In this document: positions 40,901-54,360 of the stretch, in pieces
Position numbering within the stretch: position 1 is the stretch's first letter
Layout: every line of letters starts with the position of its first letter
From: Providencia rettgeri
GTDB taxonomy: Bacteria; Pseudomonadota; Gammaproteobacteria; Enterobacterales; Enterobacteriaceae
Direction of reading: 5' to 3'
Assembly: GCF_041075285.1 (NCBI RefSeq)
Contig: NZ_CP163512.1
Coordinates: forward strand, 124,001 to 188,000
Length of the DNA stretch: 64,000 nucleotides
Notes under the pieces: generated by a model
What the model was told of the DNA's origin: nothing
Databases searched by the model: none
What the model saw: the letters and a program-made list of their open reading frames with translations, nothing else
Translations under genes and position numbers: made by a program

Positions 40901-43363
40901 GTCAATAAAGGCAGCGGCTTTGAAAAAGGCAATAGTGAGTTTTACACCGATACACAGGTGGATGCAGGTAAACAACTGGCCTTGAACAGCGGTAAAGACA
41001 CTACATTAACGGGTGCGCAGGTCAGTGGTGAAACGGTGAAAGCCAATGTAGGGGGCGATCTAACCTTATCCAGCCAGCAAACGACCGACAAATATGACTC
41101 GAAGCAAAAAGGCGGTAGCCTATCGGGCAGCATTGGCACAGGGTTGAATACCACGGCATCGGTGAATGTGAATAAAACCGAGATGCACAGTGATTATCAA
41201 TCTGTGGATAAACAAACGGGCATCCATGCCGGAAAAGGCGGCTTTGATATCACGGTGGGTAATCATACGCAACTTGACGGTGCGGTGATTGGCAGTACGG
41301 CAGAGGCGGATAAAAACACACTGGATACGGGCACACTGGGCTTTGGGAATATCAAAAATAAAGCCGAGTATAAAGTGGAAAGCCACAGTGGTGGGTTTAG
41401 CACGGGTGGCTCGCCATTTGAAGACCAGTTGGCGGGTAATGCGGCAGGCTCCTTGCTGACCAATGTGAATAACAAGGGCAAAGAGAGCAACACCACCCAT
41501 GCGGCGGTATCGGAAGGTGAGATCATCGTTCGTGATAAGGCGAACCAGCAACAAAACCTCAATGACTTAAGCCGTGATGTGGACAATGCCCATGAGAAGC
41601 TGAATACGATTTTTGACAAAGAAAAAGAGCAAAAACGGATAGAAAAGACGCAGTTAGTGGGCGAGTTAGGTAAGCAGATTACTGATATTGCGGTGACGAA
41701 TGAAAGGATAAAAGCGACTAAGGAAGAAAGGAAAAACTTCGATAAAACGCCAGTCACAGATGATGAGCGGAAAAAAGCGATTGATGCCATCAAAGATCCG
41801 AACTTGAAAGGGGATGAAACGGCTATTCGAGAGGCCATATTGAATGACCGTATTGAGAAAGCAGTTCAAAGCTCGGAATGGGGTGTGGGGGGCGATAAGC
41901 GTCGGATAGTTGAGTCGGGCACAGCGTTAATTCAAGGTTTGGTCAATGGGGATGTGAACAAAGCGGTGGCAAATGCGAGTGCGCCGTATATCGCAAATGA
42001 AATTGCCAAAAATATCGGTCAGGATAATAAAGCGGGTCGATTAACGGCTCACGGAATTGCCAATGTTGCATTAGCGCTGGCAAAAGGTGAAAATGCAGGA
42101 GCACAATCAGTCGGTGCCATGACTGCTGAAGCGGTGGGCATGCTATCGGAAGAGTTGTACAAGAAAAAACCGCATGAACTGACAGAAGATGAAAAAGCGA
42201 CAGTCAGTGCATTCGCGAGTCTGGCCGCAGGCATTGCGGGCGGGTTAGTGGGGGGAGATACATCGAGTGCAGCGAATGCGGCTGAGGCAGGGAAGACGAC
42301 AGTTGAGAATAACTTCTTGAGTCCTGATGATAGAGATGCAAGAGATAAAGCACTTGAAGATCAAAAGGCAGGCAGAAACCTGAAGAAAGCCTCTCAAGAT
42401 ATTATTTATTTATCAGATAAAGATGCTTATACCGATAAGTTAGTCGATCTCTATCGTAAGGGAGAATTAGATAGTAAAGGACAACTTGAATTAACAGAAT
42501 ACCTTGATGCTATTGGGATACAGTTACAGTTAAGAGGTATGAGTGAAAGCGAAGCGAAAAAACAGATAGAAATTATCTTAAAGTATCCTGGTGAATTCAA
42601 AAATGATCGCTCCGCTTATTACGAAGCCTTGGGTCAATTGAGTGCGGAAGAAAAGCATGCATGGCAAGCGGCTATAGGTACGGATGCTTTATTAGCTGGT
42701 CCGGGGCGAGCTAGCCAAATAATGCGATTGGCTTTAATATCAGGTGGATCATATCAAGCAGGAACAGGGATTGGTCAAATTGCAGATGGTAAAATTGCTG
42801 AAGGCTTAATCAATGTTGGTCTTGGTAGTGCAGTTGTATCAGGTGGTTACCTAGGAAATAAAGTTACTACAGGTAAGCCAAATGGTGGAACTACTATATC
42901 GAAAGAGATAACTTATGCAGATGGTATTCATTTCGCTCTGGAGCAGAAAAATCATTTAACCACTTTTGATGGAATAACTAACAAGGGTGTATATGGAACG
43001 CATAATCTGAATCAATTTACTCAAGCAGCATCTGAAAATGGAATAAAGATTATTAGCCAGACGCCAAGTAACATTAAGGGAATTAGTGAAGTTGTGTATC
43101 AAGTACCTAAAAAAAATAGAGAAGGGAACATTATTCCTGGAGAATTTAAAGATAAACTTTATGTTAAAACAGTATATGACCCGAAAGTTTTTCCTGACCA
43201 AAAAATGTTAGATTTAGGTCAGCAAGCTGCTTCCAATGGTTACAAAGATGCGATATCTCAAGGTCGACGCGAGTATCAATCAACCGCAGGAGGGGTAAAA
43301 TTCCAAGTATATTTGGATCAACAAACAGGTAGAGTTAGGAACTTTTTTCCGGTGGCTGAATGA
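34958..43363 (+). CDS. cdiA: CdiA contact-dependent inhibition effector, 5'-truncated
   Basis: 2801 residues from ATG 34958. The frame is open back to 34898 and still reads as filament repeat (ANTLENQQGKIFSAR), so the gene has lost its 5' end: there is no signal peptide, no two-partner secretion domain and no cdiB in the window. Order: FHA-1 beta-helix repeats of about 20 residues (LDNxxGxI pattern) from 1 to about 870; a non-repetitive middle of about 950-1430 that includes HFNWYDYGNGRRY and FEYGKWTKYFYEYDYDR, the expected receptor-binding/YP zone; FHA-2 repeats about 1500-2200 (GRDINLTSG, AGNDVNIEGSN); pretoxin with the PT-VENN region; VENN at 2449-2452; then a 349-residue toxin tip. The tip's NKGVYGTHNLNQF and final VRNFFPVAE suggest an EndoU/BECR-type RNase, unproven. 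The stop overlaps cdiI. In its present form it cannot be secreted by the known route. Confidence 0.85.
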   Translation: MGKLDLQIQQALDNTSGTLTGRQGVFVETQSLINRTGKVIASMGNITLNSQSLEGDKGEILAANTLNIQSGTLSLNHALTQANHILMTANTLDHQGGKLLQTGDKTGKITLQGNLNNQAGEIGSNGSLSLTANSLDNRDGQVITAKNGHLNIELDNELLNQSGALIGESGLSIAASDIQNQQGKLVARHGDAMLTVANGINNQAGLIAAEQLLQMRNQALQNQLGYLQANTININTYNQRFDNTQGSLLAKQTLVLNSGQIDNQQGSIQSGSNMLIDTHGEQLNNTQSGDNKGIYAQGELALTTGDLNNEQGRIVAKGPLALNSQGVNNQQGLVGSQSGLSMATQQLDNREGVIKGHSVSIDTQGQRLINFAKKSEQGIFASQNLAITVGELINRQGQIQANQISLDSQKNRVDNTEGEILAVNHLMANTGALENQQGRLQAGQQLTLNTHGEAVNNSHTQKSGGLLSGGGLSIKSGKLLNQQGQIQSSGEASLTTTGIENQNGQIFAGQSMDINTLQQALLNQQGTLASNGKLELNIGDFNNAQGVAQGKLGLRVKAAQIDNQKGLLLSQSALQLTGKNLDNTQGVIQSHGNATLDIHQRVENQQGQLLSGQNLSVNTQQLNNTSGVIQGLNRVELAVKQQIENKQGWIKANENLDVSAESIDNKNTAQAGKGLEGLNVSLRTTRLDNQSGAVRAGQGIEANIAQSLNNTQGMLSAGTKLSLTDNAQGKALAVSNQQGVIVSNGSATITANQLTGEGKLVAQKALSLTFHQLFENTGRIQAGENLTANFAQGFTNKGLISSLGELALNTTTVINQLSGEISGQNTRIKASGRVLNTGLIDGVLTYIVANSLDNLGTGRIYGDFLAIAVNSLVNDKQGDKAAVIAGRKEVNLAVSDLLNRDHALIYSDGDLVIGNQLNDQLQAIGHAKSVKNHSANMEAAGNLTLKTDNLENKDIHLQLTDDAVEVSREHFNWYDYGNGRRYKIQPRNGNQTRYAINEDGTLNKEVGIHYEKSNRWRMFEYGKWTKYFYEYDYDRIIYETQVVKRDAALITSGKHLTIDGQQLNNENSRVVAGQNLILTGYDLNNEEAQGIRRIFEDGNTIYRYKGGKKWKTRTSTSKYQGINSEEDLALHLLEVTENAGDINKTQVDSVKLNQLVGQAERVSDADSQENQGVNVTEQTLKESKNTPLDLLPGQQIEVVQLPSISAKVDVNDDKSVDPSLQTVDANIVKGTDIQSQSDVGKGENITAETGPQGKDNLDIVIRTVGPNTQLPDNSLFNLTPGSDSQYLIETDSRFTNYKKWLSSIDIVTNEQLHKRLGDGYYEQRLVRDQLIETTGQRLLGNYSSDEEQYRALLTSGVAFGQQFNLTPGIALSPEQMANLTTDIVWMVNKEVTLPDGRVELVSVPQVYVRARQGDLNGNGALLAGRNVSANMTGNILNSGEISSREITDLRAENIENSGRIQGKDVQLDALKDIKNVGGEIRGLDSVSLSAGRDILSETVQRGDGKSQWLDRPASIYVTGDNGQLTLKAVQDINLNATDVGNLGVEGKTSIIAGRDISLETRDISSAFDYTHNSSNYYRGENSTEVGTQIQTKGDLTLSAGQDLSARAANVSSGGELAVNVGRDINLTSGVESSDYAKHTKHTDKGFLSSTTKETHDAVNERLAISSTFSGDSVKMTAGNDVNIEGSNVLGTNDVNVSAGNQLNVTTSDEASHETHMSKTKKSGLMSSGGLGFTVGSTSQKVTTETDSNQKKGSVIGSSAGDVTLTAGGAANIHGSDVIAAKDINITGSDVNITAAENSRTDITTVESKSSGLTVSLGGTAGSLLDGMAQTAKSAKQEDDGQLAALKGMKAGLQGVQAEQAGELAGLKKGGSVKDAFGVNVSYGSSSSKSTTKTQQHTASGSSLSAGDNINLTATGKKEESQGSIAVQGSQLTADKNITLTAKNDINLTSASNTQTVDGKNSSSGSSIGAGISSGGWNVNASVNKGSGFEKGNSEFYTDTQVDAGKQLALNSGKDTTLTGAQVSGETVKANVGGDLTLSSQQTTDKYDSKQKGGSLSGSIGTGLNTTASVNVNKTEMHSDYQSVDKQTGIHAGKGGFDITVGNHTQLDGAVIGSTAEADKNTLDTGTLGFGNIKNKAEYKVESHSGGFSTGGSPFEDQLAGNAAGSLLTNVNNKGKESNTTHAAVSEGEIIVRDKANQQQNLNDLSRDVDNAHEKLNTIFDKEKEQKRIEKTQLVGELGKQITDIAVTNERIKATKEERKNFDKTPVTDDERKKAIDAIKDPNLKGDETAIREAILNDRIEKAVQSSEWGVGGDKRRIVESGTALIQGLVNGDVNKAVANASAPYIANEIAKNIGQDNKAGRLTAHGIANVALALAKGENAGAQSVGAMTAEAVGMLSEELYKKKPHELTEDEKATVSAFASLAAGIAGGLVGGDTSSAANAAEAGKTTVENNFLSPDDRDARDKALEDQKAGRNLKKASQDIIYLSDKDAYTDKLVDLYRKGELDSKGQLELTEYLDAIGIQLQLRGMSESEAKKQIEIILKYPGEFKNDRSAYYEALGQLSAEEKHAWQAAIGTDALLAGPGRASQIMRLALISGGSYQAGTGIGQIADGKIAEGLINVGLGSAVVSGGYLGNKVTTGKPNGGTTISKEITYADGIHFALEQKNHLTTFDGITNKGVYGTHNLNQFTQAASENGIKIISQTPSNIKGISEVVYQVPKKNREGNIIPGEFKDKLYVKTVYDPKVFPDQKMLDLGQQAASNGYKDAISQGRREYQSTAGGVKFQVYLDQQTGRVRNFFPVAE

Positions 43364-43744: not shown

Positions 43745-43940
43745 TCACTCCTCAGCCAGCCGGATAACCAACTCTCCGGCTTGGCAAGTGAGGGGTTAGT
43801 GGCTTCCTACCTCAAACCCGAACTCCTTCAACCACTTACCGCTAATGGTCAGCTGTGGGCTGGGGTTGGGTTTTCCTCGGTTCGGTAAGTAACCCACTGA
43901 ATATCGTCTGGTTTTTGGGGCTTCTTCTTTAGCGGCTTAT
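43745..43940 (-). pseudogene. symE-like remnant 1 (intermodule)
   Basis: Read on the minus strand the intermodule spells RRYSVGYLPNRGKPNPSPQ, LTISGKWLKEFGFEVGSH then a premature stop, with AGELVIRLAEE in a shifted frame. This is the SpoVT/AbrB-like core of SymE-family proteins. It has no start codon and a frame disruption near 43795. The surrounding 43711-44082 holds nothing else apart from the conserved leader to the VENN codon block. Confidence 0.65.
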
Positions 43941-44082
43941 GTCTGAGTTTTTATATTTAAAGGCGAAAACGCATGTCGGCAAAATCGGCACGGTAGATAA
44001 AAAGCTCTTTGAAAATGTGATGGTAACTGGCTGAATGCACTAGCAAAAAAGGATTTTATCTGCCCGTTTTGCAATGGAATGA

Positions 44083-45042
44083 GTTGTTGTTGAGAATAAC
44101 TATCTTAGCTTCGATGAAGCAAGAGAATTTGATAAGGCAATTACAAAATGCAGAGCTGAAGGAAGTGACTACCAACCAGTTATAGACCATTATTCTAAAT
44201 TAAATAAAATAAACTCAGATAAATACAAAGCAGATTGTGATAGGTATTCACTGAACTGTACTGCCGGGTATGAAAGGTTAAAACTTGATGGTGGGATCTC
44301 AGCAGCAGAAAGGCCGACATGGTTATACGGCTCTTTAGACAATGAAGATGTAAGAAACGCTGTTTTATATGAAAATCAGAAAGATCTCGAATATGGCATG
44401 GGTAAATCAGATAACTGGGATAGGCTGGGAGCATTTGTTGCAGAGCCTGAAAATACATTTGGTTTGCTCGCAGGAGGGAAGACTTTATTCAGTTCGAATA
44501 TATCAACAGGCGCTAAATTAACGGACTCTGGTTTAAGCATGGGCGCTAATGGTGGAGTTCAGCTCTATAATGGAAATACAGGCGATAAATTTGATTATTT
44601 AAACTTCTTCACTTCAGGAGTTACTGGTTGGGGAGGAAGTGGGAAATCACTCCAAACTAACATGGGGCTCAATGTTGGAAATGCTTACCTAACAAGTCAA
44701 GTTTCAGGGCAAGATTCGGAAGCTGCAATGGTTGGCACTGGTTTTGGAACAATGCTTGGTTATGGGCTAGGCTCAGGTATAACAAGTAAAATGGAGGCTG
44801 TCGAAATTAAGAATCATTTCGGGATGTCAGCAAGTAAAAAAGCATTCGAATATAGTGATAAGCCTAGATACTCTAACTTCCTTACGGAAGGAACAAAGTT
44901 TAGCCCTGTACCAGGAATTGTTGGCGGTGGATTAGGTTCGTTTAGTCTAGAATATGGCAACTCGGTTGTAAATTCTAATATTTTAGAGAATAAAAAAACT
45001 ATTGAAGGAAATAAACAAGTAAATGATGGTGAAAACAAATGA
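44083..45042 (+). CDS. Orphan CdiA-CT module 1, intact toxin tip without start
   Basis: An open frame of 320 codons begins at VVVENN (44083) directly after an in-frame TGA and runs to 45042; the only early start is an internal ATG at 44398. It cannot be made unless it is recombined onto cdiA through the VENN region. The first 100 residues (NNYLSFDEAREFDKAITKCR..) are the entry-domain-like part with paired cysteines; the C-terminal half is glycine-rich and mildly hydrophobic (GNAYLTSQVSG, GTGFGTMLGYGLGSGI). Together with a two-helix membrane immunity protein this suggests a membrane-active (ionophore-like) toxin, which is inference. Confidence 0.65.
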   Translation, partial: VVVENNYLSFDEAREFDKAITKCRAEGSDYQPVIDHYSKLNKINSDKYKADCDRYSLNCTAGYERLKLDGGISAAERPTWLYGSLDNEDVRNAVLYENQKDLEYGMGKSDNWDRLGAFVAEPENTFGLLAGGKTLFSSNISTGAKLTDSGLSMGANGGVQLYNGNTGDKFDYLNFFTSGVTGWGGSGKSLQTNMGLNVGNAYLTSQVSGQDSEAAMVGTGFGTMLGYGLGSGITSKMEAVEIKNHFGMSASKKAFEYSDKPRYSNFLTEGTKFSPVPGIVGGGLGSFSLEYGNSVVNSNILENKKTIEGNKQVNDGENK

Positions 45043-45242
45043 AGCCGTCAATACGTTCTTTATTTTTTATAATATTGGCCTGCGCTATAGTTTTTTCAAT
45101 TAGTGCTATATCAGTAGAATGGCTCTTGACTGATAGTTCTATCTTTGACTTGGAATGGAGACGTGGATTTGAGATAGGAAGCATGCTTGGCAGCTGCGTT
45201 GGTGCAGCAATTTGGCTAATGTATAAATTTAATATACGTTGA
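45039..45242 (+). CDS. Immunity protein 1, small membrane protein
   Basis: 67 residues starting in the toxin stop (ATGA). Two membrane helices are clear: SLFFIILACAIVFSISAISV near residues 7-26 and IGSMLGSCVGAAIWLMYKF near 45-63. An inner-membrane immunity protein is what would be needed against a pore-forming or ionophore toxin. No family recognised. Confidence 0.65.
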   Translation: MKPSIRSLFFIILACAIVFSISAISVEWLLTDSSIFDLEWRRGFEIGSMLGSCVGAAIWLMYKFNIR

Positions 45243-45254
45243 GTCCGCGACATT

Positions 45255-46282
45255 ATGCCCGCTACTCAAGGTAGAGTTGTTGTTGAGAATAATGAGCTCA
45301 GTCAAAAAGACTATACTGATTTAGTCCAAAAATTAGTTGATGCAGAAAAACTGGTGCTGATAAAGAAGCAATTTATCAAGAAGCTAGGGATAAAAGTAAT
45401 GCGGAAGATCAGAAAAACCTATCTCCAGATTGTGTCAACGATCCTGCATGCATTTATGCGGTCACAACCAATATAAAAGAAGGTAATAAGGCGGCTAAAA
45501 GCCAAATGCAAAACCTTTTTGTGGATTTAGTTTATGGTCTAAGCTCCGACGAAAGAGCGAAGCTAAATGAATTCATGTTAGAGACAAATTCTGACAGTGC
45601 GCAAAAACTTTATGATGCAATGCCAGATGGCGTGAAAAAAGTTGCTGAAGTAGCGATGATCGTTGCGGATTATCACATATTGCCAAATACAGGTAGTGTG
45701 AATCCAATGGTTGGGATCAAAGGAAAAGGGAATAAGGGAAATAAAGGAAATGAACCAAAGAATACCTCGACACCTAACGGTTCTTCATCTGACCATAAAA
45801 TTATTGAGATAAAATCGGGTGGTAAAGGTGAGTGGAATAAACAACTAAATAAGCCAGAGCCAAATACAGTCTATAAAGTTGATGGTAACAATACCTATAA
45901 GACTGATTCTCAAGGGCGAGTGCAAAGTGTAGAAGCAAAACTTTCATTAAATAAAAATGATAGAAATAGCTATCAGCAATGTAAAGCTGGCAAGTGTGGT
46001 GTTGCGGGTGATGAAGGTGGACATTTAATTGGTACTCGATTTAATGAACCAGGAGAAAAAATTAACATTGTTCCAATGAATTCTAATTTGAATAGAGTTG
46101 AATGGAAAAAAATGGAGAACTTATGGGCAAAAGCTTTGAAAGAGAATAAGCAAGTTGATGTCAAAATTGAGCCTGTATATATAGGGAATAGTGATCGACC
46201 AGCAAAATTCAACGTAAGATATACAATTGAAGGAGAAAGACCGGTGATCAAAAACTTTAATGATGCTCAAGGTGGGAATTAG
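45255..46282 (+). pseudogene. Orphan module 2: NS_2-type nuclease toxin with frameshift
   Basis: ATG 45255 opens a frame through VVVENN (45276 on) NELSQKDYTDLVQKLVDAEK. One base is missing in the A5 run at 45346-45350; reading resumes one frame back (KEAIYQEARDK..) and then stays open to 46282. The toxin domain, from about 45790, shows NTVYKVDGNNTYKTDSQGRV, GVAGDEGGHLIGTRF and KINIVPMNSNLNR, the DNA/RNA non-specific endonuclease (endonuclease NS_2) pattern with its catalytic histidine in GGHLI. Unlike modules 1, 3, 4 and 5 it lacks the symE-like leader and has its own ATG. Confidence 0.75.
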
Positions 46283-46284
46283 AC

Positions 46285-46614
46285 ATGAACGACCAAGTTA
46301 TATACCAAAAAATTGGGCAATTACTTGTTGATTCTGGTCCATCTGATGCTAAAAAAATCATTGTTAGAGCTGAGCTTTTTTGTGAAAGAGATGGTTGTAC
46401 CTATGAGTTTGATTATGTAAATAAAAATAATGAGTTAAATTGGTATGATCCTGATGGTAAAGCTATAAGTGATTTGACTGATACATTAGAAAATTTGAGA
46501 AGTTTTTATATTGATAATATAAAATCGGAAGAAAGTTCATTTTGGCATGGATGTGAAATTACTTTAGACTTAGAAACAATGAAAATTAATATAGATTTTA
46601 AGTACGAAGACTAA
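46285..46614 (+). CDS. Immunity protein 2, YezG-like
   Basis: 109 residues, starting two bases after the nuclease stop. MNDQVIYQKIGQLLVDSGPS, ELFCERDGCTYEFDYVNKNN and the ending HGCEITLDLETMKINIDFKY resemble the YezG (DUF600) immunity family that pairs with NS_2-type nuclease toxins in Bacillus YeeF. The partnership supports the nuclease call. It is intact. Confidence 0.65.
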   Translation: MNDQVIYQKIGQLLVDSGPSDAKKIIVRAELFCERDGCTYEFDYVNKNNELNWYDPDGKAISDLTDTLENLRSFYIDNIKSEESSFWHGCEITLDLETMKINIDFKYED

Positions 46615-46619
46615 AGCAA

Positions 46620-46646
46620 AAGATCCCAATACAAGATTGGGATCTT
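46620..46646 (+). terminator. Terminator after immunity 2
   Basis: AAGATCCCAAT pairs with ATTGGGATCTT around ACAAG, ending in CTT. It lies six bases after the immunity stop. Confidence 0.7.
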
Positions 46647-46663
46647 CCTTGAATGATCTTACT

Positions 46664-46862
46664 CACTCTTCAGTCAACCGGATAATCAACTGTCCGGCTT
46701 GGCGTGTAAGGGTGTAGTGGCTGCCTACCTCAAATCCTAACTCCTTCAACCATTTCATTTACTGCTGATGGTCAGCTGTGGGCTGGGATTGGGTTTTCCT
46801 CGGTTCGGTAAGTAACCCATTGAATATCTTCTGGATTTTTGGGCTTCTTCTTTAGCGGCTTA
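46664..46862 (-). pseudogene. symE-like remnant 2 (intermodule)
   Basis: Minus-strand reading RRYSMGYLPNRGKPNPSPQL then TIS runs into TGA where other copies have GKWLKE; the tail AGQLIIRL is preserved in pieces. No start codon. It is the same symE-like gene as the other intermodule copies, with a different lesion. The rest of 46615-47004 is the shared leader. Confidence 0.6.
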
Positions 46863-47004
46863 TGTCTGAGTTTTTATATTTAAAGACGAAAATGCACGTC
46901 GGCAAAATCGGCACGATAGGTTAAAATGCTCTTTTAAAATGTGTGGTAACTTGCTGAATGTACTAGGAAAAATGGGTTTTTCTGCCCGTTTTGTAATGGA
47001 ATGA

Positions 47005-47687
47005 GTTGTTGTTGAGAATAATGCATTAACTAATGAAGATGCCAAGCCTGGTTGGGGCTTACCAATGACACCGGGCGATAAAATCAAGGCCGAAGCTGAC
47101 CAAAAGATCGCAAAAGAACTTGAAAATAGTTTAGGCAGTATATTTGATTGTTCTTTTGGAATGAGTTGCTCAAATGATATTGATCAGGTAGGTAAAGATC
47201 CGAATGTTGCAAAAAAGCTAACTGCGGAAGAAAAAGAAGCCCTTGGTATTTCTGGCGGTGGTACCGCTGGTACACCTAACGGTTTTGAGCCAGATGATGA
47301 AAAATTTAAACAACAAGAAATTCAAACTACACATAGAAAAAATGAAATTAAGGAACTATTTGAATACGATAATAGTAGATCTGGTATTCAAATTGGAAAT
47401 AGGACTTTAATTGAAATGCCAAATAAAGGTAATGCAAAAATTTTTAGTGGGGCGTCAGAAGCAGAAATCAAACAGTATTTTATTGAATTAACAGGTAATA
47501 AGTCACTACCAGAAGCAAGGGTCGTACCTGGTAAAGGAAATATTTATACAGTTAAAACCCCAAATGGAAGTTTTAACTTGCGTGATTTTTTAACTCAACA
47601 AGTGAAACAGGAAAAGCTTGGACAATTGATATTCCAAGAGGTATAGCCAAGGATGCTGCACCAGTAGAAATAAAATTTTTGAAGTGA
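47005..47687 (+). pseudogene. Orphan module 3: CdiA-CT toxin, frameshifted near the end
   Basis: Starts VVVENNALTNEDAKPGWGLP right after TGA. The frame is open through a linker (GGGTAGTPNGFEPDDEKF) and a toxin domain with QIGNRTLIEMPNKGNAKIFS, ARVVPGKGNIYTVKTPNGSF and NLRDF. A single T is lost in the run at 47586-47591; in the restored frame the protein would finish TSETGKAWTIDIPRGIAKDA and EIKFLK. This terminal pattern is common in polymorphic toxins, but I cannot name the activity. The last 33 residues are lost from the encoded product. Confidence 0.65.
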
Positions 47688-47694
47688 GCCAAAA

Positions 47695-48057
47695 ATGAAC
47701 AAAATTTTACATTTTAAGGAAATTGTTGATGACTCAAGAGGGTTGTGGTTGTCAGGGCTTTTTGGTGCTGTTGTTGGTTGGAATCCAAATAACTCTTTTT
47801 ATGAAAATAAAAATATATTCTTTTCTATAATTGAAGAATTGTTGGATAAGCAGACAATTAAATTTTGTTCCCCTGAAGATCCATTAGGGAAAGTTATTCC
47901 ATATTGGGATACGGACAATAAGAACATTGTTAATTTTCTTAAGCAACATTGGCCTACTAGCGCTAATACTGAAGAAGATGATGATCTAAACTTTTATTTT
48001 TATGACATGCCTGCTGTACTATGGAAGACTGATTCAGGGAAATATGTAGGTTCATAG
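47695..48057 (+). CDS. Immunity protein 3, DUF596-like
   Basis: 120 residues, starting eight bases after the restored toxin end. FSIIEELLDKQTIKFCSPED, QHWPTSANTEEDDDLNFYFY and DMPAVLWKTDSGK resemble DUF596 proteins that accompany MafB/CDI-type toxins. Soluble and acidic; intact. Confidence 0.55.
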   Translation: MNKILHFKEIVDDSRGLWLSGLFGAVVGWNPNNSFYENKNIFFSIIEELLDKQTIKFCSPEDPLGKVIPYWDTDNKNIVNFLKQHWPTSANTEEDDDLNFYFYDMPAVLWKTDSGKYVGS

Positions 48058-48117: not shown

Positions 48118-48127
48118 CTTGGCAGCT

Positions 48128-48322
48128 TTACTCCCCCTCAGCCAACCGGATGATCAACTGCCCGGCTTGGTGAGTGAGGGTGTAGTGACTGCCCACCTCA
48201 AACCCTAACTCTTGCAGCCACTTACCGCTAATGGTCAGCTGTGGGCTGGGGTTGGGTTTTCCTCGGTTCGGCAAGTAACTCACTGAGTATCGTCTGGTTT
48301 TTTGGGCTTCTTCTTTAGCGGC
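48128..48322 (-). pseudogene. symE-like remnant 3, longest open copy
   Basis: This copy reads without interruption on the minus strand for 64 codons: EEAQKTRRYSVSYLPNRGK, LTISGKWLQELGFEVGSHYT then LTHQAGQLIIRLAEGE and TAA. It is the complete SymE core domain, but a TAA precedes it and there is no ATG, so only an internal GTG could start it. It serves as the reference for the other copies. In E. coli SymE is an SOS-regulated RNA-cleaving toxin; any activity here is doubtful. Confidence 0.65.
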
Positions 48323-48470
48323 TTATGTCTGAGTTTTTATATTTAAAGGCAAAAACACACGTCGGGGGTGTTCGAGTCCAAACATGAAAATGCTCTTTAA
48401 AGAACTTCATTTAACCAACTGAATATACAAACAAAAATGTGTTTCACCTGCCCATTTTGCAATGAAATGA

Positions 48471-49639
48471 GTTGTTGTTGAGAATAACTATCTGACGGGA
48501 GCTGATAAACGAGAAGCAGATGAAAAATATGCTCGTTGTAACGGTGATAAAGATTGCCAATTAAAAGTTGTACGTGAAACTAATGAACTGAGTCAACGTA
48601 AAGATGATGAGTTATTAGCATATAAACAACAGCTAGTTAGAGAAATGGGTAAAGAAATGGAAGCGGCAGTGATCGCTTGCCAAGGTGATATGGAATGCCA
48701 ACGCCAAGAATACGCAACGATAAAAACAGATTATGATAACCGCTATAGAGAACATATGAAAATAGTCACAGAAAATACATCTTTGGGGGATTTGGATTAT
48801 CAATATTATCCAGATAACACACGAGTTGAGAGTGTTATTGATGGAGTTGTGAATACAGGCCCAGAAAAAGCAGTAGATCTTGCTAAAAATGTGACTAACT
48901 ATGTAACTAATCATTCTGCTAGTGAAATGCTTGGTGATACCCTCCAAGTTGGTAAAATAGTTATTGGTATTCCTCAGGAGTGGTTGAGTCAAGATATTCC
49001 CGCTCAGTCATTAGAGAAAGCTTTATTTTCCTTAGGTGTATCAACAGGACATGAAATTGGTGAAGCTACCTTTTACAACATGGTTGGTACATCAGTAGTT
49101 TCTGTTGGCGGGAAAGCTCTTCAGTGGAGCAATGGCAAATGGATCCCTGTAAAAATAGGAAATCTGGAACCAGGAAACCCTTTAAGCACAAGTATAGTAA
49201 GAAATGGTGATAGATTAGTCCTTAATCAGGGTAACTTACCTACATGCGGCCTAATTCGTGTGCAATGGTTATGAATACTTCAGGGCTGAATTATGATCTT
49301 GGAAAGTTAATTACTGATGCTAAAGTTACTCCTCAAGGAGCTAGAATGAACAATTTAGCTTCAGCAATGAGAAACCAAGAACTTGCCGATGCTCGCTTTA
49401 TATCTAGAGTATCTGTTGAGGATCTTGCTGCTGCAACATCAAAAGGAAATCCAGCAATTGTTGCAATGAAGCTTAATAGAGGTGGTCATGCGGTAGTTGT
49501 TGATGGGATTACAGTCAGGAACGGTCAAACTGTTGTTGCAATACGGGATCCTGCATTAGGAAGACAATATTTTACCCCTATTGATGAATTTAAAAATAAA
49601 TATATGGGACAGGCAATAATCACGTCACCAAAAAAATAA
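48471..49639 (+). pseudogene. Orphan module 4: C39-like cysteine peptidase toxin, frameshifted at the catalytic Cys
   Basis: Starts VVVENNYLTGADKREADEKY after TGA and is open to 49274. The linker has paired cysteines (ARCNGDKDCQ, ACQGDMECQ). At GNLPTCG the frame breaks: one C is missing around 49248-49251. Restoring it gives TCGPNSCAMVMNTSG, the nucleophile cysteine region of a peptidase C39/papain-like fold, followed in the second frame by GGHAVVVDGITV (histidine) and IRDPALGRQY (aspartate) up to 49639. The catalytic triad is thus split between two frames. Expected activity: protein cleavage in the target cell. Confidence 0.75.
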
Positions 49640-49651
49640 TAAGGAGAATAT

Positions 49652-50005
49652 ATGAATAGCAAGTGGGATTTATTTTCCTTGCAGGGAAATGTGATTAGGG
49701 AACTAAGCGGCTTTTTGTTTATTACAATGGTTGATGGCTCACTTAAAGGATTTATAGCGGATTCAGATAACATAAATAGTACAGATAAATGTACTAAGAT
49801 AATTTTATCAGAAAGTAATATTAAAAAAATTTTTGAGCAAGATGAAACATTTGGAAGTTTAGTTGGCAGCAAATACTTTTATTTTGTTATGCCCATCATA
49901 TTGAAAGATGTTGTTGTATGCCAAGAAAATCATGAGTTTATATTGATTAAAAGTAGTGTTTTAATATTATTCGAAGATGATATAAAACAAGAAATATTTA
50001 TTTGA
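49652..50005 (+). CDS. Immunity protein 4 (family not recognised)
   Basis: 117 residues after an AAGGAG site, 12 bases from the toxin end. It begins MNSKWDLFSLQGNVIRELSG and contains YFYFVMPIILKDVVVCQENH. No membrane helix or signal peptide is obvious. It is called an immunity protein only from its place after the peptidase toxin. Intact. Confidence 0.55.
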   Translation: MNSKWDLFSLQGNVIRELSGFLFITMVDGSLKGFIADSDNINSTDKCTKIILSESNIKKIFEQDETFGSLVGSKYFYFVMPIILKDVVVCQENHEFILIKSSVLILFEDDIKQEIFI

Positions 50006-50030
50006 TAATAAATCAGTGTCTCTAAAAATA

Positions 50031-50058
50031 GAGATCCCCAGTCCCACACTGGGATCTC
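50031..50058 (+). terminator. Terminator after immunity 4
   Basis: GAGATCCC(C)AGT pairs with ACTGGGATCTC, one bulged base, about 25 bases after the stop. Confidence 0.65.
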
Positions 50059-50068
50059 CTTAGCCGCT

Positions 50069-50270
50069 CTACTCCCCCTCAGCCAGCCGGATAATCAGCA
50101 GTCCGGCTTAGCGGGTGAGAGTAACATTGCTACCCACCGTAAAACCTAACTCACTCAACCATTTGCCGCTGAATGTCAGTTGCTGGTTGGGGTTACCACG
50201 GTTGGGGGGCGTAATCTACTGTATAGTGTCTGGTTTTATCTCTCTCTAAGCTCAAAAACGCACATAGGGA
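50069..50270 (-). pseudogene. symE-like remnant 4 (intermodule)
   Basis: Minus-strand HYTVDYAPQPW ends at a stop, the tail LTFSGKWLSELGFTVGSNVT is in another frame, and a TAA interrupts before AGLLIIRLAEGE. It is more diverged than copies 1-3. It has no start codon. The rest of 50006-50371 is leader sequence. Confidence 0.6.
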
Positions 50271-50371
50271 ATTTTGAGTCCAAATGCCAAAACGCACTGG
50301 GAAAAACGAGTTGTAAGTGACTAAGAAAACTAGAAAAAGTGATTTTATTGGGCTGGGTCGCAATGGAATGA

Positions 50372-51256
50372 GTTGTTGTTGAGAATAACTCAATGGCACT
50401 TGGTGGAAACCTTGGGTTCTTATTTGCTGATATCCCAGATTGTGATGCGAGCTGTAAAGTAGACATAACTAAAGGCATTAATAATGGTAATTTAGTTATG
50501 TCTGGAGCATCGATGGGTGTCATTGCAGCTGGCTACTCATTAGTTATAGCACCAGAAATGATAGCAACTGTTCGAGCTGCTTTAACTGGCTGTAAAGCAG
50601 CACCTGTAATATGCTTAAATGAAGTGGGTATATTTACAGCAGAGGTAGTAACACCGGGAGGAACTGGTGCCGGCGGTGCATTGATTATCGGTAAAACAGC
50701 ACAAGAAGTCTCGACAGTTAAACAAGTAATACAGTCAGAAGCCAAGGCTGGTAAGATTAACTTGAATCAGTTGACGAGTGCGGAGTCAACAGTAATAAAC
50801 TCAGGTAAAGATATCCTTAAGTTGCCTAATGGAAAACAAGGGACAGTCATACAGAATGCATTAGAACCTCATGAATACCAGCAAGCATTAGATATTGTTA
50901 AATATAAGGGTGGTAATTTTAAAGGAGTTGAAAAAGAAAATTTCCAAGGAATAGATGGATAGCTAGATGGTGTTCCGGTCCAATTAAAATTAGTAGAAGG
51001 GCAGAGCATCAACGCTGTTAGGCGCAATATTGTGAGTGGTGCCAAAGATATGCAAAAAGCTGGCTATCAAGGGGATCTATATGTGGATGCATCTAAAACA
51101 GGTGTAAGCATGAAAGAAATGATTGACCACTTTAAATCTGGCTCTCCAGTTAGCAATATCACAAAAGAAGGCACGGTAAATAATATTTACATTAAAACCC
51201 AAGATGGCTGGCTTAATGTTACAAGTGGCTCAATTAGTACCAATGGAGGAAAATAA
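50372..51256 (+). pseudogene. Orphan module 5: toxin tip with in-frame TAG
   Basis: Starts VVVENNSMALGGNLGFLFAD after TGA. The frame is open to a TAG at 50960-50962 and continues in the same frame to TAA at 51254-51256. The stop falls inside GIDG-stop-LDGVPVQLKLVEG, probably once a tryptophan codon. The first part has two long hydrophobic segments (MSGASMGVIAAGYSLVIAP, GAGGALIIG), as CDI entry domains do. The tip with HEYQQALDIVKYKGGNFKGV and QLKLVEGQSINAVRRNIVSG could be a PD-(D/E)XK-like nuclease; unproven. Confidence 0.65.
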
Positions 51257-51705
51257 TGTCTAACGAAATTTTATTTCCAATTAAAAAGCTTCCTCAATTT
51301 GAAGGTATCCTCAATAGTATCGTCGATGGGTTTAATGACTTTTCTTTGTCTACAAAACAATTAACTATAGGTATATCAGCTAAAAAAGGACTAAATTTAC
51401 TTGATAAGTTTATCTATATACACGACCACCAATATGATTATTTTTGTTGGATAAGTTTTAACTTTATTGAAGAAAATCTACGTGATATAGATGATATAGA
51501 GTACCCATATATGGTAAGTGTCTCCACAAGAGGTGAGAGCAACTTAAAGTTTTCAGTTTTAATTTTATATATAATATCTAGCTCATTGAATTCAAGAGTA
51601 ATTTATGATGATGCTTATTTAATCCAAGCTAAAGAGCCTTATCCATCTTCTGAATTAAAACCATTTGTTGAGCGTTACATTCAAGATCTTTACTCTATTA
51701 ATTAA
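51256..51705 (+). CDS. Immunity protein 5 (family not recognised)
   Basis: 149 residues starting in the toxin's TAA (TAATG). It begins MSNEILFPIKKLPQFEGILN and includes DYFCWISFNFIEENLRDIDD. Soluble, acidic, intact. Called an immunity protein from position and coupling. Confidence 0.55.
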   Translation: MSNEILFPIKKLPQFEGILNSIVDGFNDFSLSTKQLTIGISAKKGLNLLDKFIYIHDHQYDYFCWISFNFIEENLRDIDDIEYPYMVSVSTRGESNLKFSVLILYIISSSLNSRVIYDDAYLIQAKEPYPSSELKPFVERYIQDLYSIN

Positions 51706-51708
51706 TGA

Positions 51709-51737
51709 GACGATCCCAGTTCTCTGCTGGGATCGTC
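51709..51737 (+). terminator. Terminator after immunity 5
   Basis: GACGATCCCAG pairs perfectly with CTGGGATCGTC, ending CTT, within 10 bases of the stop. Confidence 0.7.
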
Positions 51738-51747
51738 CTTAAATATT

Positions 51748-51803
51748 TTACTCGTTCTCAACCAGCTGGATAATCAACTGTCCGGCTTGGCGAGTGAGGG
51801 TTG
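51748..51803 (-). pseudogene. symE-like remnant 5 (tail only)
   Basis: Only the last 18 or so codons remain (minus strand LTRQAGQLIIQLVEN then TAA). It breaks at about 51803 and is followed by unrelated sequence leading into a toxin fragment, so a deletion has removed the leader and the VENN part of module 6. Confidence 0.5.
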
Positions 51804-51834
51804 TGTCCACTCCCCACTAGTTGAGATACATTAG

Positions 51835-51993
51835 ATTAGCCAAATTCAATATCATTCTAGAAGAGGCAGGAATGTTGGTAGTTATTATAAAGTCTCCACG
51901 ACAGCACAAAGTGCAATAAAATTTGTAGAACTAAACACATATAAGCCGACGCAAGGTGAAAAAACTACAAAAATTAATAAAACTAAAGAGTAG
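51835..51993 (+). pseudogene. Orphan module 6: last 52 codons of a toxin
   Basis: The open frame reads ISQIQYHSRRGRNVGSYYKV then STTAQSAIKFVELNTYKPTQ and ends KINKTKE, stop at 51991-51993, six bases before the next ATG. There is no VENN, start or entry domain. It is a toxin tip in the immunity-proximal position. Confidence 0.5.
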
Positions 51994-51998
51994 ATATT

Positions 51999-52355
51999 AT
52001 GGAAAAATTTGAATGGATAGCTCGTGCTTTTATGCAGTCAAGTGACACCCAAATAAGTTTATTTCCTGATTGTGTAAATGTGGCAGATCAACTTGCCACA
52101 GAGTGGGAAATAGCATTAGATGACATAAGTTATGAGTTGTTATCTATTGAACAAAGCTTTGCGATTAAAGAGTTTGATGATTATATGTTATCAATCAGTG
52201 GTCCATATAATGTGCGATTTTGGAATAATGAAGCGCTTTCATTAAGTACAGAATGGGAAAAAATGAGAGCACTAGCTAGAAAGGTTGTAGTTAGCATTGG
52301 ATGGTCCGAAACTCCGCCTCCAAAAGATAATTCAATATATATAAATCATAACTAA
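51999..52355 (+). CDS. Immunity protein 6 (family not recognised)
   Basis: 118 residues beginning MEKFEWIARAFMQSSDTQIS, acidic, no membrane helix. It follows a toxin-tip fragment, so an orphan immunity role is inferred. Intact. Confidence 0.5.
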   Translation: MEKFEWIARAFMQSSDTQISLFPDCVNVADQLATEWEIALDDISYELLSIEQSFAIKEFDDYMLSISGPYNVRFWNNEALSLSTEWEKMRALARKVVVSIGWSETPPPKDNSIYINHN

Positions 52356-52406
52356 TAAGTGCTCTTAATCGAATTCCACTATCATACTCGGATCCTATTA
52401 ACTACC

Positions 52407-52555
52407 TCACTCCTCTGCCAACCGGATAATCAACCGTCCGGTTAGCGGGTGAGGGTATAGTGACTTTCGACCTCAAATTTTAAATTCTTCAACCAGCTAT
52501 TATTTATAGTTAGCTGCGGCTGGGAGGTGATACCTCGGGTTGATAAGCAATTAAA
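52407..52555 (-). pseudogene. symE-like remnant 6 (badly decayed)
   Basis: Traces of the minus-strand tail (RLAEE, RTVDYPVG-like) and of the KWLKNLKFEVESHYTL segment remain, with internal gaps; the N-terminal half is lost. The 52356-52604 gap contains only this and a mutated leader ending GAACGAGTTGTTGTTAGAAT, where the VENN codons themselves are damaged. Confidence 0.45.
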
Positions 52556-52604
52556 TGAAGATATTGGTAATAAGTGGTTCATCTATCCATTTTGTAATTG
52601 AACG

Positions 52605-52837
52605 AGTTGTTGTTAGAATTGATATAATAGCTAAGGATAAGAATGGAACTATTAAGTGTCTTGATTACAAGAGATCTTAAAATTGCTTATTCATTAAAAA
52701 TCAAGAAAACGGCTTCTCTGAACTTAAAGCTGAAGGTAGAACTATTGTCGGGAAAGGAATATCTAGGTTTGAGGGGAAATACTAAGATACCTCCAACAGT
52801 AGTTGAAGTTGTTAGGCCAAAAGTAACTGATAATTAA
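52605..52837 (+). pseudogene. Orphan module 7: shredded toxin tip
   Basis: Pieces in three frames read DIIAKDKNGTIKCLDYKRS, NQENGFSELKAEGRTIVGKG with ISRFEGKY, and KIPPTVVEVVRPKVTDN before the stop at 52837. Joined, they look like the C-terminal end of a nuclease-type toxin, but with at least two frameshifts and a stop. The degraded VENN precedes it at about 52606. Confidence 0.5.
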
Positions 52838-52846
52838 GGATGTTAT

Positions 52847-53191
52847 ATGTCAATAGAAGATTTAAATAAAATTGATTTAATTACTGTTACTTGTGATGAC
52901 GTAGAGCCTCCTCAAGCGATATTAGTGATTACAGATCATTTACAATGGTCAGAGTGTACTAATGAGCATCTATATAAATTGCAAGAAAAAATTAATAAAT
53001 ATATAGATTTTGTTGAGAGCGGAGAAATGTTAGAAAAATATCCTGATACATTTTATAAGGATATTGTGTTTAAAATTTTCTTTAAGTATAAAATTCCTTA
53101 TGAGTGTATTGAGTTTATAAAGCGCGTTAGTGAAATATTATTACCTATAAAAATTCAACTGACGTATGAAGAAAAAAATATTATTGATTGA
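52847..53191 (+). CDS. Immunity protein 7, DUF6572-like
   Basis: 114 residues: MSIEDLNKIDLITVTCDD, VITDHLQWSECTNEHLYKLQ, EKINKYIDFVESGEMLEKYP. The pattern (DHL.W..E..LQEK.N.Y..F.ESGE) resembles DUF6572 immunity-type proteins. A paralogue follows at 53381. Intact. Confidence 0.6.
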   Translation: MSIEDLNKIDLITVTCDDVEPPQAILVITDHLQWSECTNEHLYKLQEKINKYIDFVESGEMLEKYPDTFYKDIVFKIFFKYKIPYECIEFIKRVSEILLPIKIQLTYEEKNIID

Positions 53192-53194
53192 ACA

Positions 53195-53380
53195 CTTCAT
53201 ATCATTTTGAAATGATGTAAATACCAGTCTAAACAGGGAGCTTTAATATCAATTTTACTCCTCAGTCAGCCGAATAATCAACTGTACGATGGGGTAAGGC
53301 GGCGCGAGCACCTATATTAAACTATAATATATTCAGGTGGTTACCGCTAAAATGCCAAACCGGGAAAATAGAGGGAATAA
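53195..53380. other. Intermodule remnant 7
   Basis: Between the two DUF6572-like genes about 40 bases (53258-53300) still match the symE-like tail on the minus strand; the remaining sequence has no VENN or toxin codons that I can find. The toxin of this module is gone. Confidence 0.4.
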
Positions 53381-53728
53381 ATGTCAATAGTAGAGACAAA
53401 TAAAGTAGATATGATTGGTATACCAAAAGATAATACAGATATTGTTCTATTAGGCATAACTGACCATCTATATTGGAATAAGGACATACTTGAACATTTA
53501 TATTTACTACAAGAAAAAATTAATAGCTATATTCGTTTTATTGAAAGTAAAGAGGTATATGAGGCTTTCCCTGAATCGAAAGGAATTAATAATTTTTTGA
53601 TAGAAATATTTTTTCTACATGAAATACCATCAGAATGCATTGAATTTCTTGAAAAAGTAAAAGGCGTACTGATTAGCATTAATACTTCATTAAGATATGA
53701 AGTAAATAGTGAATCACCCTTTGTTTAG
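53381..53728 (+). CDS. Immunity protein 8, DUF6572-like paralogue
   Basis: 115 residues with the same layout as the gene at 52847: MSIVETNKVDMIGIPKDNTD, GITDHLYWNKDILEHLYLLQ, EKINSYIRFIESKEVYEAFP and ECIEFLEKVKG. Identity between the two is visible throughout but partial, so they are old duplicates or separately acquired variants. AGAGGGAATAA precedes the ATG. No toxin remains before it. Confidence 0.6.
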   Translation: MSIVETNKVDMIGIPKDNTDIVLLGITDHLYWNKDILEHLYLLQEKINSYIRFIESKEVYEAFPESKGINNFLIEIFFLHEIPSECIEFLEKVKGVLISINTSLRYEVNSESPFV

Positions 53729-53976
53729 TTTACTTGGTTGTTTTATTCAACCACTTGTCGCTGATAACCAGTTGTGGGCTAGGGGGGGGCTCGGTTCGGT
53801 AAATAACCTACTGAAATTTTTCGCTTTTGAACACCTCTCCTTTAGCTATGAAAGTCTGAATTTCGGGTGAAACTATCGCTTTTTTACGGTGAGTTGATAT
53901 AACAACTGTACCGATTGACATTAAAAAAGATATATTAGAAACAACGACGAGTTAATCGTTTTGGGAGCAAAAACAA
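53729..53976. other. Intermodule remnant 8
   Basis: Near 53745-53830 the minus strand still carries symE-like codons (LVISDKWLNK region, PNRAPP-like). A short plus-strand tail TVPIDIKKDILETTTS ending at about 53954 may be the last codons of a lost toxin. Nothing else seen. Confidence 0.35.
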
Positions 53977-54360
53977 ATGCATATTCATTGGTTAGAAAAA
54001 ACAAAAAGCGACTTAATACATCATGGAGCTAGTGATCTTTATTATTTGGTAGAATCATTGATTAAAAAAGAAAAAATGACATATAGGCAATTTGTATATG
54101 ATGCATCATATGGTATCAGTAATGGTGAAGATGAAGGATTTAATTTTGCACTGGATAGTGATTATGATGATCCAAATGACTTTGCGTCTGTTGAGTTTTA
54201 TGTTGGGGGTATGGAAAGTACCGAGATCAGTGTGCCTACTTTTATAGAGTTAATACAATATTTATCAGATAATTATATCCTTGATAATCCGACTGATAAA
54301 ATATCAGTCGAAAAATCAATGTTAAGAATTAGACAGCGCTACAATAAGTTTTTTAAATGA
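53977..54360 (+). CDS. Orphan immunity protein 9 (family not recognised)
   Basis: 127 residues beginning MHIHWLEKTKSDLIHHGASD, strongly acidic in the middle (SNGEDEGFNFALDSDYDDPN), soluble. It is the last gene of the array, after a symE-like remnant, and has no toxin. An immunity role is inferred from context. Intact. Confidence 0.5.
   Translation: MHIHWLEKTKSDLIHHGASDLYYLVESLIKKEKMTYRQFVYDASYGISNGEDEGFNFALDSDYDDPNDFASVEFYVGGMESTEISVPTFIELIQYLSDNYILDNPTDKISVEKSMLRIRQRYNKFFK

What the first reader, a model, noticed from the sequence alone, without database searches (positions are those of the whole stretch)
43360..54360. Orphan CDI modules decay step by step with distance from cdiA
Seen: going away from cdiA the toxin tips are intact (main, module 1), then carry a single frameshift (modules 2, 3, 4), then a nonsense codon (5), then only a 52-codon tip (6), then shredded pieces (7), then no toxin (8, 9). 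Every downstream immunity frame is open. Inference: new modules enter next to cdiA, older ones are pushed outward, and only immunity is kept, so the array is a time-ordered record and an immunity bank against neighbours' toxins. Orphan cdiA-CT/cdiI modules are known; this graded order is what deserves attention.
Basis: partly seen in the sequence, partly recalled or inferred. Interest (0 to 1): 0.88.

Follow-up and report, generated by a model that had tools for sequence, protein, structure and literature searches.

The report
Disarmed CDI locus keeping immunity genes

Summary
The graded order is in the sequence: module 1's toxin tip is intact, modules 2-5 carry one lesion each, 6-7 keep scraps, 8-9 have none, and all nine orphan immunity frames are open. 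The genome is a Providencia species.

Three things were missed. (1) The "main" cdiA is decapitated: cdiB, the TPS/signal region and about 1,100 codons are gone, though all six relatives occupied at the same chromosomal site have them. (2) The repeated spacer carries a convergent symE; blocks shared between species often start at VENN and end in or just past symE. (3) Four of nine orphan immunities (2, 5, 6, 7) match immunities of armed CdiA loci in other Providencia species at 79-99% identity.

Across the genus, toxin loss rises away from cdiA (p 0.014 without this array), but not monotonically. Module 5 is 98% identical in DNA in three distant species, so position is not age. Toxin loss also goes with loss of delivery (15/18 lost at disabled loci, 8/29 at working ones; few loci, tested after the fact).

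Displacement with immunity retention is already published for Acinetobacter CDI and Vibrio T6SS. This is an informative, disarmed member of a known kind.

The parts
34155..34820 (+). ccmB, left flank of the genus-wide insertion site (ccmA-like ABC gene at 33538-34155)
   Evidence: Pfam CcmB; match in 23 of 24 genus genomes
34893..34901 (.). Deletion junction: ccmB downstream DNA meets the inside of cdiA; 5,387 bases of G012 fall between (cdiB and cdiA codons 1 to about 1105)
   Evidence: blastn to 7 of 7 relatives' cdiA starts at 34901, and the ccmB-side match to G012 ends at 34893; missing part not found elsewhere in the genome beyond three short weak hits (40 of 43 candidates scored)
34958..43363 (+). 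Decapitated cdiA: haemagglutinin repeats, PT-VENN, toxin tip from VENN at 42302; no TPS/signal region
   Evidence: Pfam; six TPS matches in own genome, none in the window; single PT-VENN in the genome
43360..43710 (+). Main cdiI (CdiI_4 / ribonuclease-toxin immunity family)
   Evidence: PF18624, NF033826
43751..43897 (-). symE-like gene/remnant after the main cdiI, part of the about 390-base repeated spacer
   Evidence: tblastn with the SymE-like ORF; repeats
44089..45042 (+). Module 1 toxin tip, intact from VENN (317 codons)
   Evidence: Open frame; 88% aa to an orphan tip in G002, dN/dS 0.09
45039..45242 (+). Module 1 immunity gene
   Evidence: Open; 72% aa in G002
45282..46282 (+). Module 2 toxin in two frames; nuclease half 45506-46282; no symE seen between modules 1 and 2
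   Evidence: PF13930 Endonuclea_NS_2; frames
46285..46614 (+). Module 2 immunity gene
   Evidence: PF04634 YezG-like; 95% aa to the immunity beside the armed cdiA of P. alcalifaciens DSM 30120 (L074, same contig as G016 C65)
46669..46820 (-). symE remnant in two frames
47011..47646 (+). Module 3 toxin, frame change near its 3' end
   Evidence: Compared with the open copy in G011
47695..48057 (+). Module 3 immunity gene
   Evidence: 97.5% aa on a P. rettgeri plasmid (G011 C2 / NZ_CP077318)
48128..48283 (-). symE-like gene
   Evidence: PF08845 SymE_toxin, 50.7 bits
48477..49639 (+). Module 4 toxin in two frames (C39-peptidase-like tip)
   Evidence: PF03412; frames; no match listed in the genus (12 candidates scored per genome)
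49652..50005 (+). Module 4 immunity gene
   Evidence: Open frame
50072..50206 (-). symE remnant
50378..51256 (+). Module 5 toxin with one in-frame stop; open copies exist in G013, G021, G010, G023
51256..51705 (+). Module 5 immunity gene
   Evidence: 98.7% aa to immunities beside armed cdiA in G010 and G023
51835..51993 (+). Module 6 toxin tail, 52 codons, next to a truncated symE (51751-51813)
   Evidence: a 690-base block with the tail and immunity matches the main module of G010 at 79%
51999..52355 (+). Module 6 immunity gene
   Evidence: 79% aa to main immunity of G010, 82% to an orphan in G005; branch dN/dS 0.11
52605..52846 (+). Module 7 toxin pieces beside a degenerate VENN
   Evidence: Block 52612-53283 matches the 3' end of G018's main tip and its immunity at 81% DNA
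52847..53191 (+). Module 7 immunity gene
   Evidence: PF20212 DUF6572; 82% aa to main immunity of G018; branch dN/dS 0.15
53381..53728 (+). Module 8 immunity gene, no toxin seen
   Evidence: PF20212 DUF6572; 45% aa to module 7 immunity
53977..54360 (+). Module 9 immunity gene, no toxin seen
   Evidence: 74% aa at the same place in G006; 62-residue remnant in G012
56270..57064 (+). TSUP-type transporter gene, right flank of the insertion site
   Evidence: Position used across the genus; the family label is recalled, not from a call

Best explanation
This is a CDI (contact-dependent growth inhibition) island of a Providencia species that has been disarmed and survives as an antidote store. Shown: cdiB and the export half of cdiA, present at this site in six relatives, are missing, so neither the main toxin nor any spare can be delivered by the CDI route. 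Shown: the displaced modules behind it mostly run VENN - toxin tip - cdiI - convergent symE, and such stretches are shared between species. Inferred: they move as cassettes, recombining upstream at the VENN-coding stretch and downstream in symE, sometimes at cdiA (pushing the old tip outward) and sometimes inside the array. Shown: all ten immunity genes are open, those with near relatives are constrained, and four match immunities of armed loci of sister species. Inferred: they are kept because they protect against those neighbours. Inferred: toxin tips decay because they are not used, faster once delivery is lost; distal ones have lost most because the array end is on average older, but position is only a loose guide to age.
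For: cdiB (ShlB, POTRA) and TPS/ESPR by Pfam in G012, and homologues in all six relatives at this site but not here; missing part not elsewhere in the genome; one PT-VENN in the genome. SymE by Pfam. Shared blocks: left end at VENN in 20 of 49 (1.7 expected), right end in or just past symE in 24 of 49 (11.9 expected), both in 12. Immunities open 9/9, toxins 1/9; constraint. Matches to armed loci: I2 95%, I5 98.7%, I6 79%, I7 82%. Module 5 at 98% DNA identity in G013, G023 and G010, where ccmB is 74-80%. Toxin loss by locus state: 8/29 at working loci, 15/18 at disabled loci; label permutation over 11 arrays 4/330.
Against: No expression or protection data exist. Pairwise dN/dS averages over times when the genes sat in armed loci, and toxin pieces are as constrained as immunities (0-0.27, one 0.48), so it does not prove selection after orphaning; only the branch values for I6 and I7 bear on that, from three sequences each. 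Immunity is not always kept: G012's I9 is a remnant. The 49 blocks are pairwise and not independent. The locus-state test rests on four disabled arrays, was made after seeing part of the data, and is weaker without this genome (0.05 for VENN-bearing tips, 0.033 for all modules); G009's broken cdiA could be a sequencing error. For five of nine immunities (1, 3, 4, 8, 9) no close armed match was found; for I3 further loci (66-68% aa) were not all examined for arming, and I9's best main match is 45%.
Confidence: 0.6

Rival explanations
1. Conveyor belt: modules enter only beside cdiA, are pushed outward in order, and toxins decay with age while immunity stays, so the array reads as a time record.
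For: Perfect order here; weak trend in other genus arrays, p 0.014; distal I9 shared with G006/G012 at the same end; displaced cdiA 3' pieces before orphan modules in G012, G006 and G015 fit insertion at cdiA.
Against: Module 5 is the most recently shared by dS and module 1 is as diverged as 6 and 7; G005, G002 and G009 mix intact and broken tips; the same module 5 sits as main tip, orphan 1 or orphan 5 in different species; outside Providencia some loci run the other way, e.g. L095, nearest tip 22 codons and four beyond it 255-319 (crude).
Confidence: 0.17
2. Neutral rot: after disarmament everything decays, and the immunity frames survive because they are short targets and the locus is young.
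For: For modules 2-5 alone, four lesions in about 1250 toxin codons predict fewer than two in 495 immunity codons, so zero there is unremarkable (own arithmetic on frames); the 2821-codon open cdiA frame suggests recent disarmament.
Against: In modules 6-9 toxins are gone but four of four immunities are open; divergence of I6, I7 and I9 from relatives is large (dS 0.58-0.83) with dN/dS 0.11-0.16.
Confidence: 0.13
3. Silent armoury: orphan modules are reserves that recombine onto cdiA to change the toxin; immunity is carried along.
For: Orphan toxins at working loci are mostly intact (21 of 29) and constrained, e.g. the G006/G012 orphan at the same place, dN/dS 0.09; relatives of tips 2, 5, 6 and 7 are main tips in other species. 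Model proposed in PMC4927057 (passages read).
Against: Cannot work in this genome now, because there is no cdiB or TPS; eight of nine orphan toxins here are broken or gone.
Confidence: 0.1

Closest known systems
Orphan cdiA-CT/cdiI arrays (PMC3150448, passages read; eleven orphan pairs in E. coli EC869)
   Same: VENN-led toxin fragments, generally without start signals, each followed by cdiI, downstream of cdiA; modules shared between strains from VENN onward
   Different: Here cdiB and the export half of cdiA are lost; most modules are followed by a convergent symE, which recurs in the genus; toxins mostly broken
Stepwise 5'-to-3' displacement of orphan cdi modules with cdiI predominating (Acinetobacter, PMC6336857, passages read)
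   Different: Here divergence data contradict strict order (module 5 recently shared, module 1 old)
T6SS immunity gene arrays by sequential displacement (Vibrio cholerae, PMC5361080, abstract and model section read)
   Same: Old immunity genes kept behind the newest effector, proposed protection against kin
   Different: Different delivery system; the model there has the old effector displaced rather than left to rot in place
T6SS/CDI immunity islet SAIDI-1 (Salmonella Typhi, PMC7400221, passages read)
   Same: Array made mainly of proposed orphan immunity genes against toxins absent from the genome
   Different: This locus shows its origin directly: a decapitated cdiA with toxin remnants
CDI cluster with symE in Proteus mirabilis BL95 (PMC11278526, passages read)
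   Same: SymE-family gene, opposite strand, inside a CDI cluster with orphan modules
   Different: That paper takes symE as not part of CDI; here it recurs after most modules, and the spacer matches in 18 of 24 genus genomes

Membership tests
Orphan cdiA-CT/cdiI module array | Toxin fragment starting at VENN, without its own start, downstream of cdiA | tested here: met
   Modules 1-5 have VENN frames; in the sequence of modules 1 and 3-5 a stop lies just upstream of VENN; module 7 has a degenerate VENN; modules 6, 8, 9 have none
Orphan cdiA-CT/cdiI module array | cdiI-like gene directly after each fragment | tested here: met
   Nine open frames; Pfam families for I2, I7, I8; the other six have no family hit above cut-off
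Orphan cdiA-CT/cdiI module array | Orphan toxins and immunities functional | not testable with these tools
   Needs bench work
Functional CDI system (cdiBAI) | CdiB transporter next to cdiA | tested here: not met
   No CdiB homologue in the G000 stretch, while 14 of 26 loci examined have cdiB, TPS and one open cdiA frame
Functional CDI system (cdiBAI) | CdiA with signal and TPS domain | tested here: not met
Functional CDI system (cdiBAI) | PT-VENN, toxin tip and cognate cdiI | tested here: met
   PT-VENN 65.7 bits and CdiI_4; open tip
Time-ordered displacement array (as in PMC5361080 and PMC6336857) | Age of modules rises with distance from the effector | tested here: not met
   dS to nearest relative: m1 0.59, m2 0.21, m3 0.13, m5 0.01, m6 0.69, m7 0.58, m9 0.83 (immunity genes); m4 and m8 have no close relative; divergence from a sampled copy is only a proxy for age
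Time-ordered displacement array (as in PMC5361080 and PMC6336857) | Toxins lost, immunities kept, more so distally | tested here: met
SymE (PF08845) | Sequence match to family | tested here: met
   50.7 bits against cut-off 29 for 48128-48283; the NCBIfam SymE equivalog is far below its cut-off (17.4 against 132)
SymE (PF08845) | Working type I toxin-antitoxin unit with antisense RNA | not tested
   Several copies here are short or in two frames

The most novel reading that the evidence does not exclude
In Providencia, orphan CDI toxins are held intact by selection as long as the locus can still deliver them, and start to rot when delivery is lost, while immunity genes stay. Loss of cdiB and the 5' part of cdiA then turns weapon loci into immunity-only loci, repeatedly: three of 19 loci classified (this genome, G001, G021) have a cdiA 3' part but no cdiB or TPS. 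symE acts as the downstream homology arm that makes VENN-to-symE a mobile cassette.
Probability: 0.33. Interest if true: 0.6.

Novelty: new member of a known kind. Interest (0 to 1): 0.42.

Why it matters
It is a worked case of how a contact-killing locus may end: the weapon is lost and the antidotes stay. Because the matching armed loci sit in sister species, it makes the old question of why orphan CDI modules are kept (immunity store or toxin reserve) testable with natural isolates. It also warns against reading such arrays as calendars: the most recently shared module sits at position five.

Tried and rejected
Rejected: module order as a clock (dS data). Rejected: relocation of the missing 5' part elsewhere in the chromosome (three short TPS-region hits and the junction itself). 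Rejected: a second VENN-type CdiA in this genome that could use the array (one PT-VENN). Led nowhere: promoter scan (31 found, 42.8 expected from shuffles). The terminator scan gave 11 against 6.6 expected, including minus-strand hairpins just after immunities 2, 3 and 4, at the end of symE. Gradient outside Providencia: all 77 loci were listed, 7 of them Providencia; few of the rest have two or more VENN-bearing orphans in the 10 kb held; by eye there is no consistent trend, and no p value was made. No structure prediction was run. Main tip: no Pfam hit; tip 1: sub-threshold CdiA_helical; tips 3 and 5: no hit, tested on window pieces and on open copies in G011 and G010.

Rows dropped or re-scored before counts. 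G005 module 7, scored intact by the script, was changed to broken by hand, because its end in another frame matches the tail of tip 6; G005 module 8, without a canonical VENN, was scored intact from its open frame; G005's last fragment without immunity was not counted; G009 orphan 1 (an insertion, no VENN) and G012 orphan 2 (truncated immunity) were scored lost; arrays with a single orphan (G013, G015, G001) and G011p were left out of the position test; trailing fragments in G010 and G018 were not counted as modules. G011p's second orphan (short frame beside an IS91 transposase) was counted broken; eight of the 19 classified loci were not scored for orphans (G010, G018, G016b, G016d, G010b, G023b, G008b, G011b), so a short second VENN in G008b (21 codons) and any toxin-less modules there are outside the count. 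L074 and L166 dropped as duplicates; blocks under 450 bases or 82% identity and pairs within one genome not used. The integrity table was discarded because it took frameshifted pieces for immunities. CT1 dN/dS used a wrong frame and was replaced; the negative branch dS for I2 is saturation and was not used.

Full report
WHAT WAS CLAIMED AND WHAT IS THERE. The array at 43360-54360 is real, with the content described: toxin tips intact in the main gene and module 1, one lesion each in modules 2-5, scraps in 6 and 7, none seen in 8 and 9, and all immunity frames open. Scored intact/lesion/lost, the nine orphan modules are perfectly ordered (permutation p 0.0016), and orphan immunities are open 9/9 against toxins 1/9 (Fisher p 0.0004). 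The finer grading is thinner than it looks: modules 2-5 each have one lesion, so the order rests on near-full-length (1-5) against lost (6-9).

THE MAIN GENE IS DECAPITATED. The 2801-codon cdiA has haemagglutinin repeats and PT-VENN but no TPS domain. The genome's six TPS matches all lie elsewhere, and its one PT-VENN is this one. The cdiA-like sequence begins about 80 bases after ccmB. Record titles place the relatives in Providencia (handles were tied to names by equal contig lengths). In the 24 genus genomes held, ccmB was found in 23 and the right-flank gene in 18. By their coordinates the interval between the two is 15-42 kb in seven genomes, this one included, and 0.05-2.4 kb in eleven. 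All six other filled loci have a CdiB homologue (open frame 572-585 codons) and a cdiA open frame of 3,822-3,927 codons; in G012 Pfam confirms ShlB, POTRA, TPS and ESPR. Here the ccmB side matches G012 up to 34893 and the cdiA side matches 7 of 7 relatives from 34901; 5,387 bases of G012 fall between. They are not elsewhere in this genome, apart from three short weak hits at TPS genes. So nothing here can be exported by the CDI route.

THE SPACER CARRIES symE. The roughly 390-base repeat behind several immunity genes holds, on the other strand, a SymE-family frame (48128-48283, PF08845, 50.7 bits; the NCBIfam SymE equivalog is far below cut-off). The matching stretch of a P. rettgeri plasmid is annotated as SymE. 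The spacer matches in 18 of 24 genus genomes. Among 49 pairwise blocks shared between different genomes that end inside arrays, 20 start at VENN (1.7 expected with random placement), 24 end in or just past symE (11.9 expected) and 12 do both; the pairs are not independent. I read this as a mobile cassette: VENN, tip, cdiI, symE.

IMMUNITIES MATCH ARMED NEIGHBOURS. I2 is 95% identical to the immunity beside the armed cdiA of P. alcalifaciens DSM 30120 (G016), I5 98.7% to those of armed second loci in G010 and G023, I6 79% to the main immunity of G010, and I7 82% to that of G018; all these loci have cdiB, TPS and one open cdiA frame. I9 is 45% to a main immunity in G011. I1 matched only beside an orphan tip (G002). 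I3 matched beside an orphan tip in G011 and at 66-68% at loci in G003, G015 and G016 that were not examined for arming, apart from G015's, where no cdiB or TPS was found. I4 had no listed match (one search scored 12 candidates per genome), and I8 only matches at 43-45%. dN/dS to the nearest relative is 0.08-0.27 (I5 0.12-0.49 on few changes; distant pairs up to 0.55); the G000 branch gives 0.11 (I6) and 0.15 (I7). Toxin pieces are as constrained pairwise (0-0.27, one at 0.48), so these numbers alone do not show selection after orphaning.

POSITION IS NOT AGE. dS of immunity genes to the nearest relative is 0.59 (I1; 0.69 for its tip), 0.21 (I2), 0.13 (I3), 0.01 (I5), 0.69 (I6), 0.58 (I7) and 0.83 (I9), with none close for 4 and 8. 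ccmB dS to the two nearest species is about 0.95. Module 5 is 98% identical in DNA in G013, G023 and G010; in G021 a longer block is 91% identical, with tip and immunity 97-99% in protein. ccmB is 74-80% identical to these four. Module 5 is a main tip in G010 and G023, orphan 1 in G013 and G021, orphan 1 and broken in G001, and orphan 5 here. The direction of transfer is not known. At the far end, I9 is shared in place with G006 and survives as a remnant in G012, which fits an older distal end and also shows that immunity can be lost.

OTHER ARRAYS. Scores from cdiA outward (0 intact, 1 lesion, 2 lost): G005 00000010100002, G002 0000101, G009 201122, G012 02, G006 02, G021 02. Without this genome the trend is 33 net of 59 untied pairs, p 0.014 (binary score p 0.024); no single other array reaches 0.05 (hand changes are listed under Tried and rejected). 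So there is a tendency, not a stepwise order.

DELIVERY STATE. Of 26 loci examined, 14 have cdiB, TPS and one open cdiA frame; five have a cdiA that is decapitated (G000, G001, G021) or interrupted (G009, G011b); seven gave no cdiB or TPS match and were not classified further. Eleven of the 19 classified loci were scored for orphans. Orphan toxins are lost in 8 of 29 at working loci and 15 of 18 at disabled loci (Fisher 0.0003; label permutation over arrays 4/330); for VENN-bearing tips only, 5/25 against 7/10 (Fisher 0.015; permutation 6/330). Leaving out this genome gives permutation values of 0.033 and 0.05, and Fisher 0.016 and 0.10. Modules in one array are not independent, and I tested this after seeing part of the data. 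In support, the orphan toxin at the same place in G006 and G012 is intact in both, dS 0.43 against 0.49 for ccmB, dN/dS 0.09; the other orphan-orphan toxin pairs computed give 0.09-0.41.

WHAT IS KNOWN. PMC3150448 (passages; Poole 2011) described orphan modules, sharing from VENN onward, and the immunity-repertoire idea. PMC4927057 (passages; first author Ruhe recalled) set out both the fossil-record and the silent-reserve models. PMC6336857 (passages, Acinetobacter) states stepwise 5'-3' displacement with cdiI predominating. PMC5361080 (abstract and model section; Kirchberger 2017) gives the T6SS version. PMC7400221 (passages) describes an immunity islet in Salmonella. PMC11278526 (passages) notes a symE in a CDI cluster as not part of CDI. 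PMC4231636 (passages) added nothing on decapitated loci. I did not find a VENN-to-symE cassette, or a link between toxin decay and loss of delivery, in the searches made, which cover an open-access library and of which I read only the papers named.

VERDICT. A confirmed observation, an interpretation that is partly right and already in print, and a more telling fact beside it: the locus is disarmed. Confidence in the antidote-store reading 0.6; in the strict time record 0.17.

Noticed in passing
window 34820-56270: The ccmB to TSUP-type gene interval is a genus-wide insertion site: by coordinates 15-42 kb in seven genomes and 0.05-2.4 kb in eleven of the 18 in which both ends were found.
   Followed up: partly
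window 43751-53798, minus strand: symE-like copies become shorter towards the far end of the array, much as the toxins do; none was seen between modules 1 and 2.
   Followed up: partly
G001 and G021 CDI loci (L066/L168, L065/L169): Two further cdiA genes without cdiB or TPS, with other neighbours upstream, still followed by modules.
   Followed up: partly
L166 (NZ_CP077318.1, P. rettgeri plasmid) 12001-13613: A plasmid with a complete cdiBAI carries a module 3 relative as its first orphan, a possible vehicle for module transfer.
   Followed up: partly
window 44089-45042 and G002 orphan 4: Two orphan copies of tip 1 in different species are both intact, dN/dS 0.09 at dS 0.69; no other copy was listed in the genus.
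   Followed up: no
window 52847-53191 and 53381-53728: Modules 7 and 8 carry two diverged DUF6572 immunities (45% identical).
   Followed up: no
G000:C1:684979-685113: A 79% match to part of module 3's toxin lies elsewhere in the genome.
   Followed up: no
G002 18279-19757 and G009 9930-11408 (region coordinates): A block from one VENN to the next is 99.7% identical between two species at different array positions.
   Followed up: no
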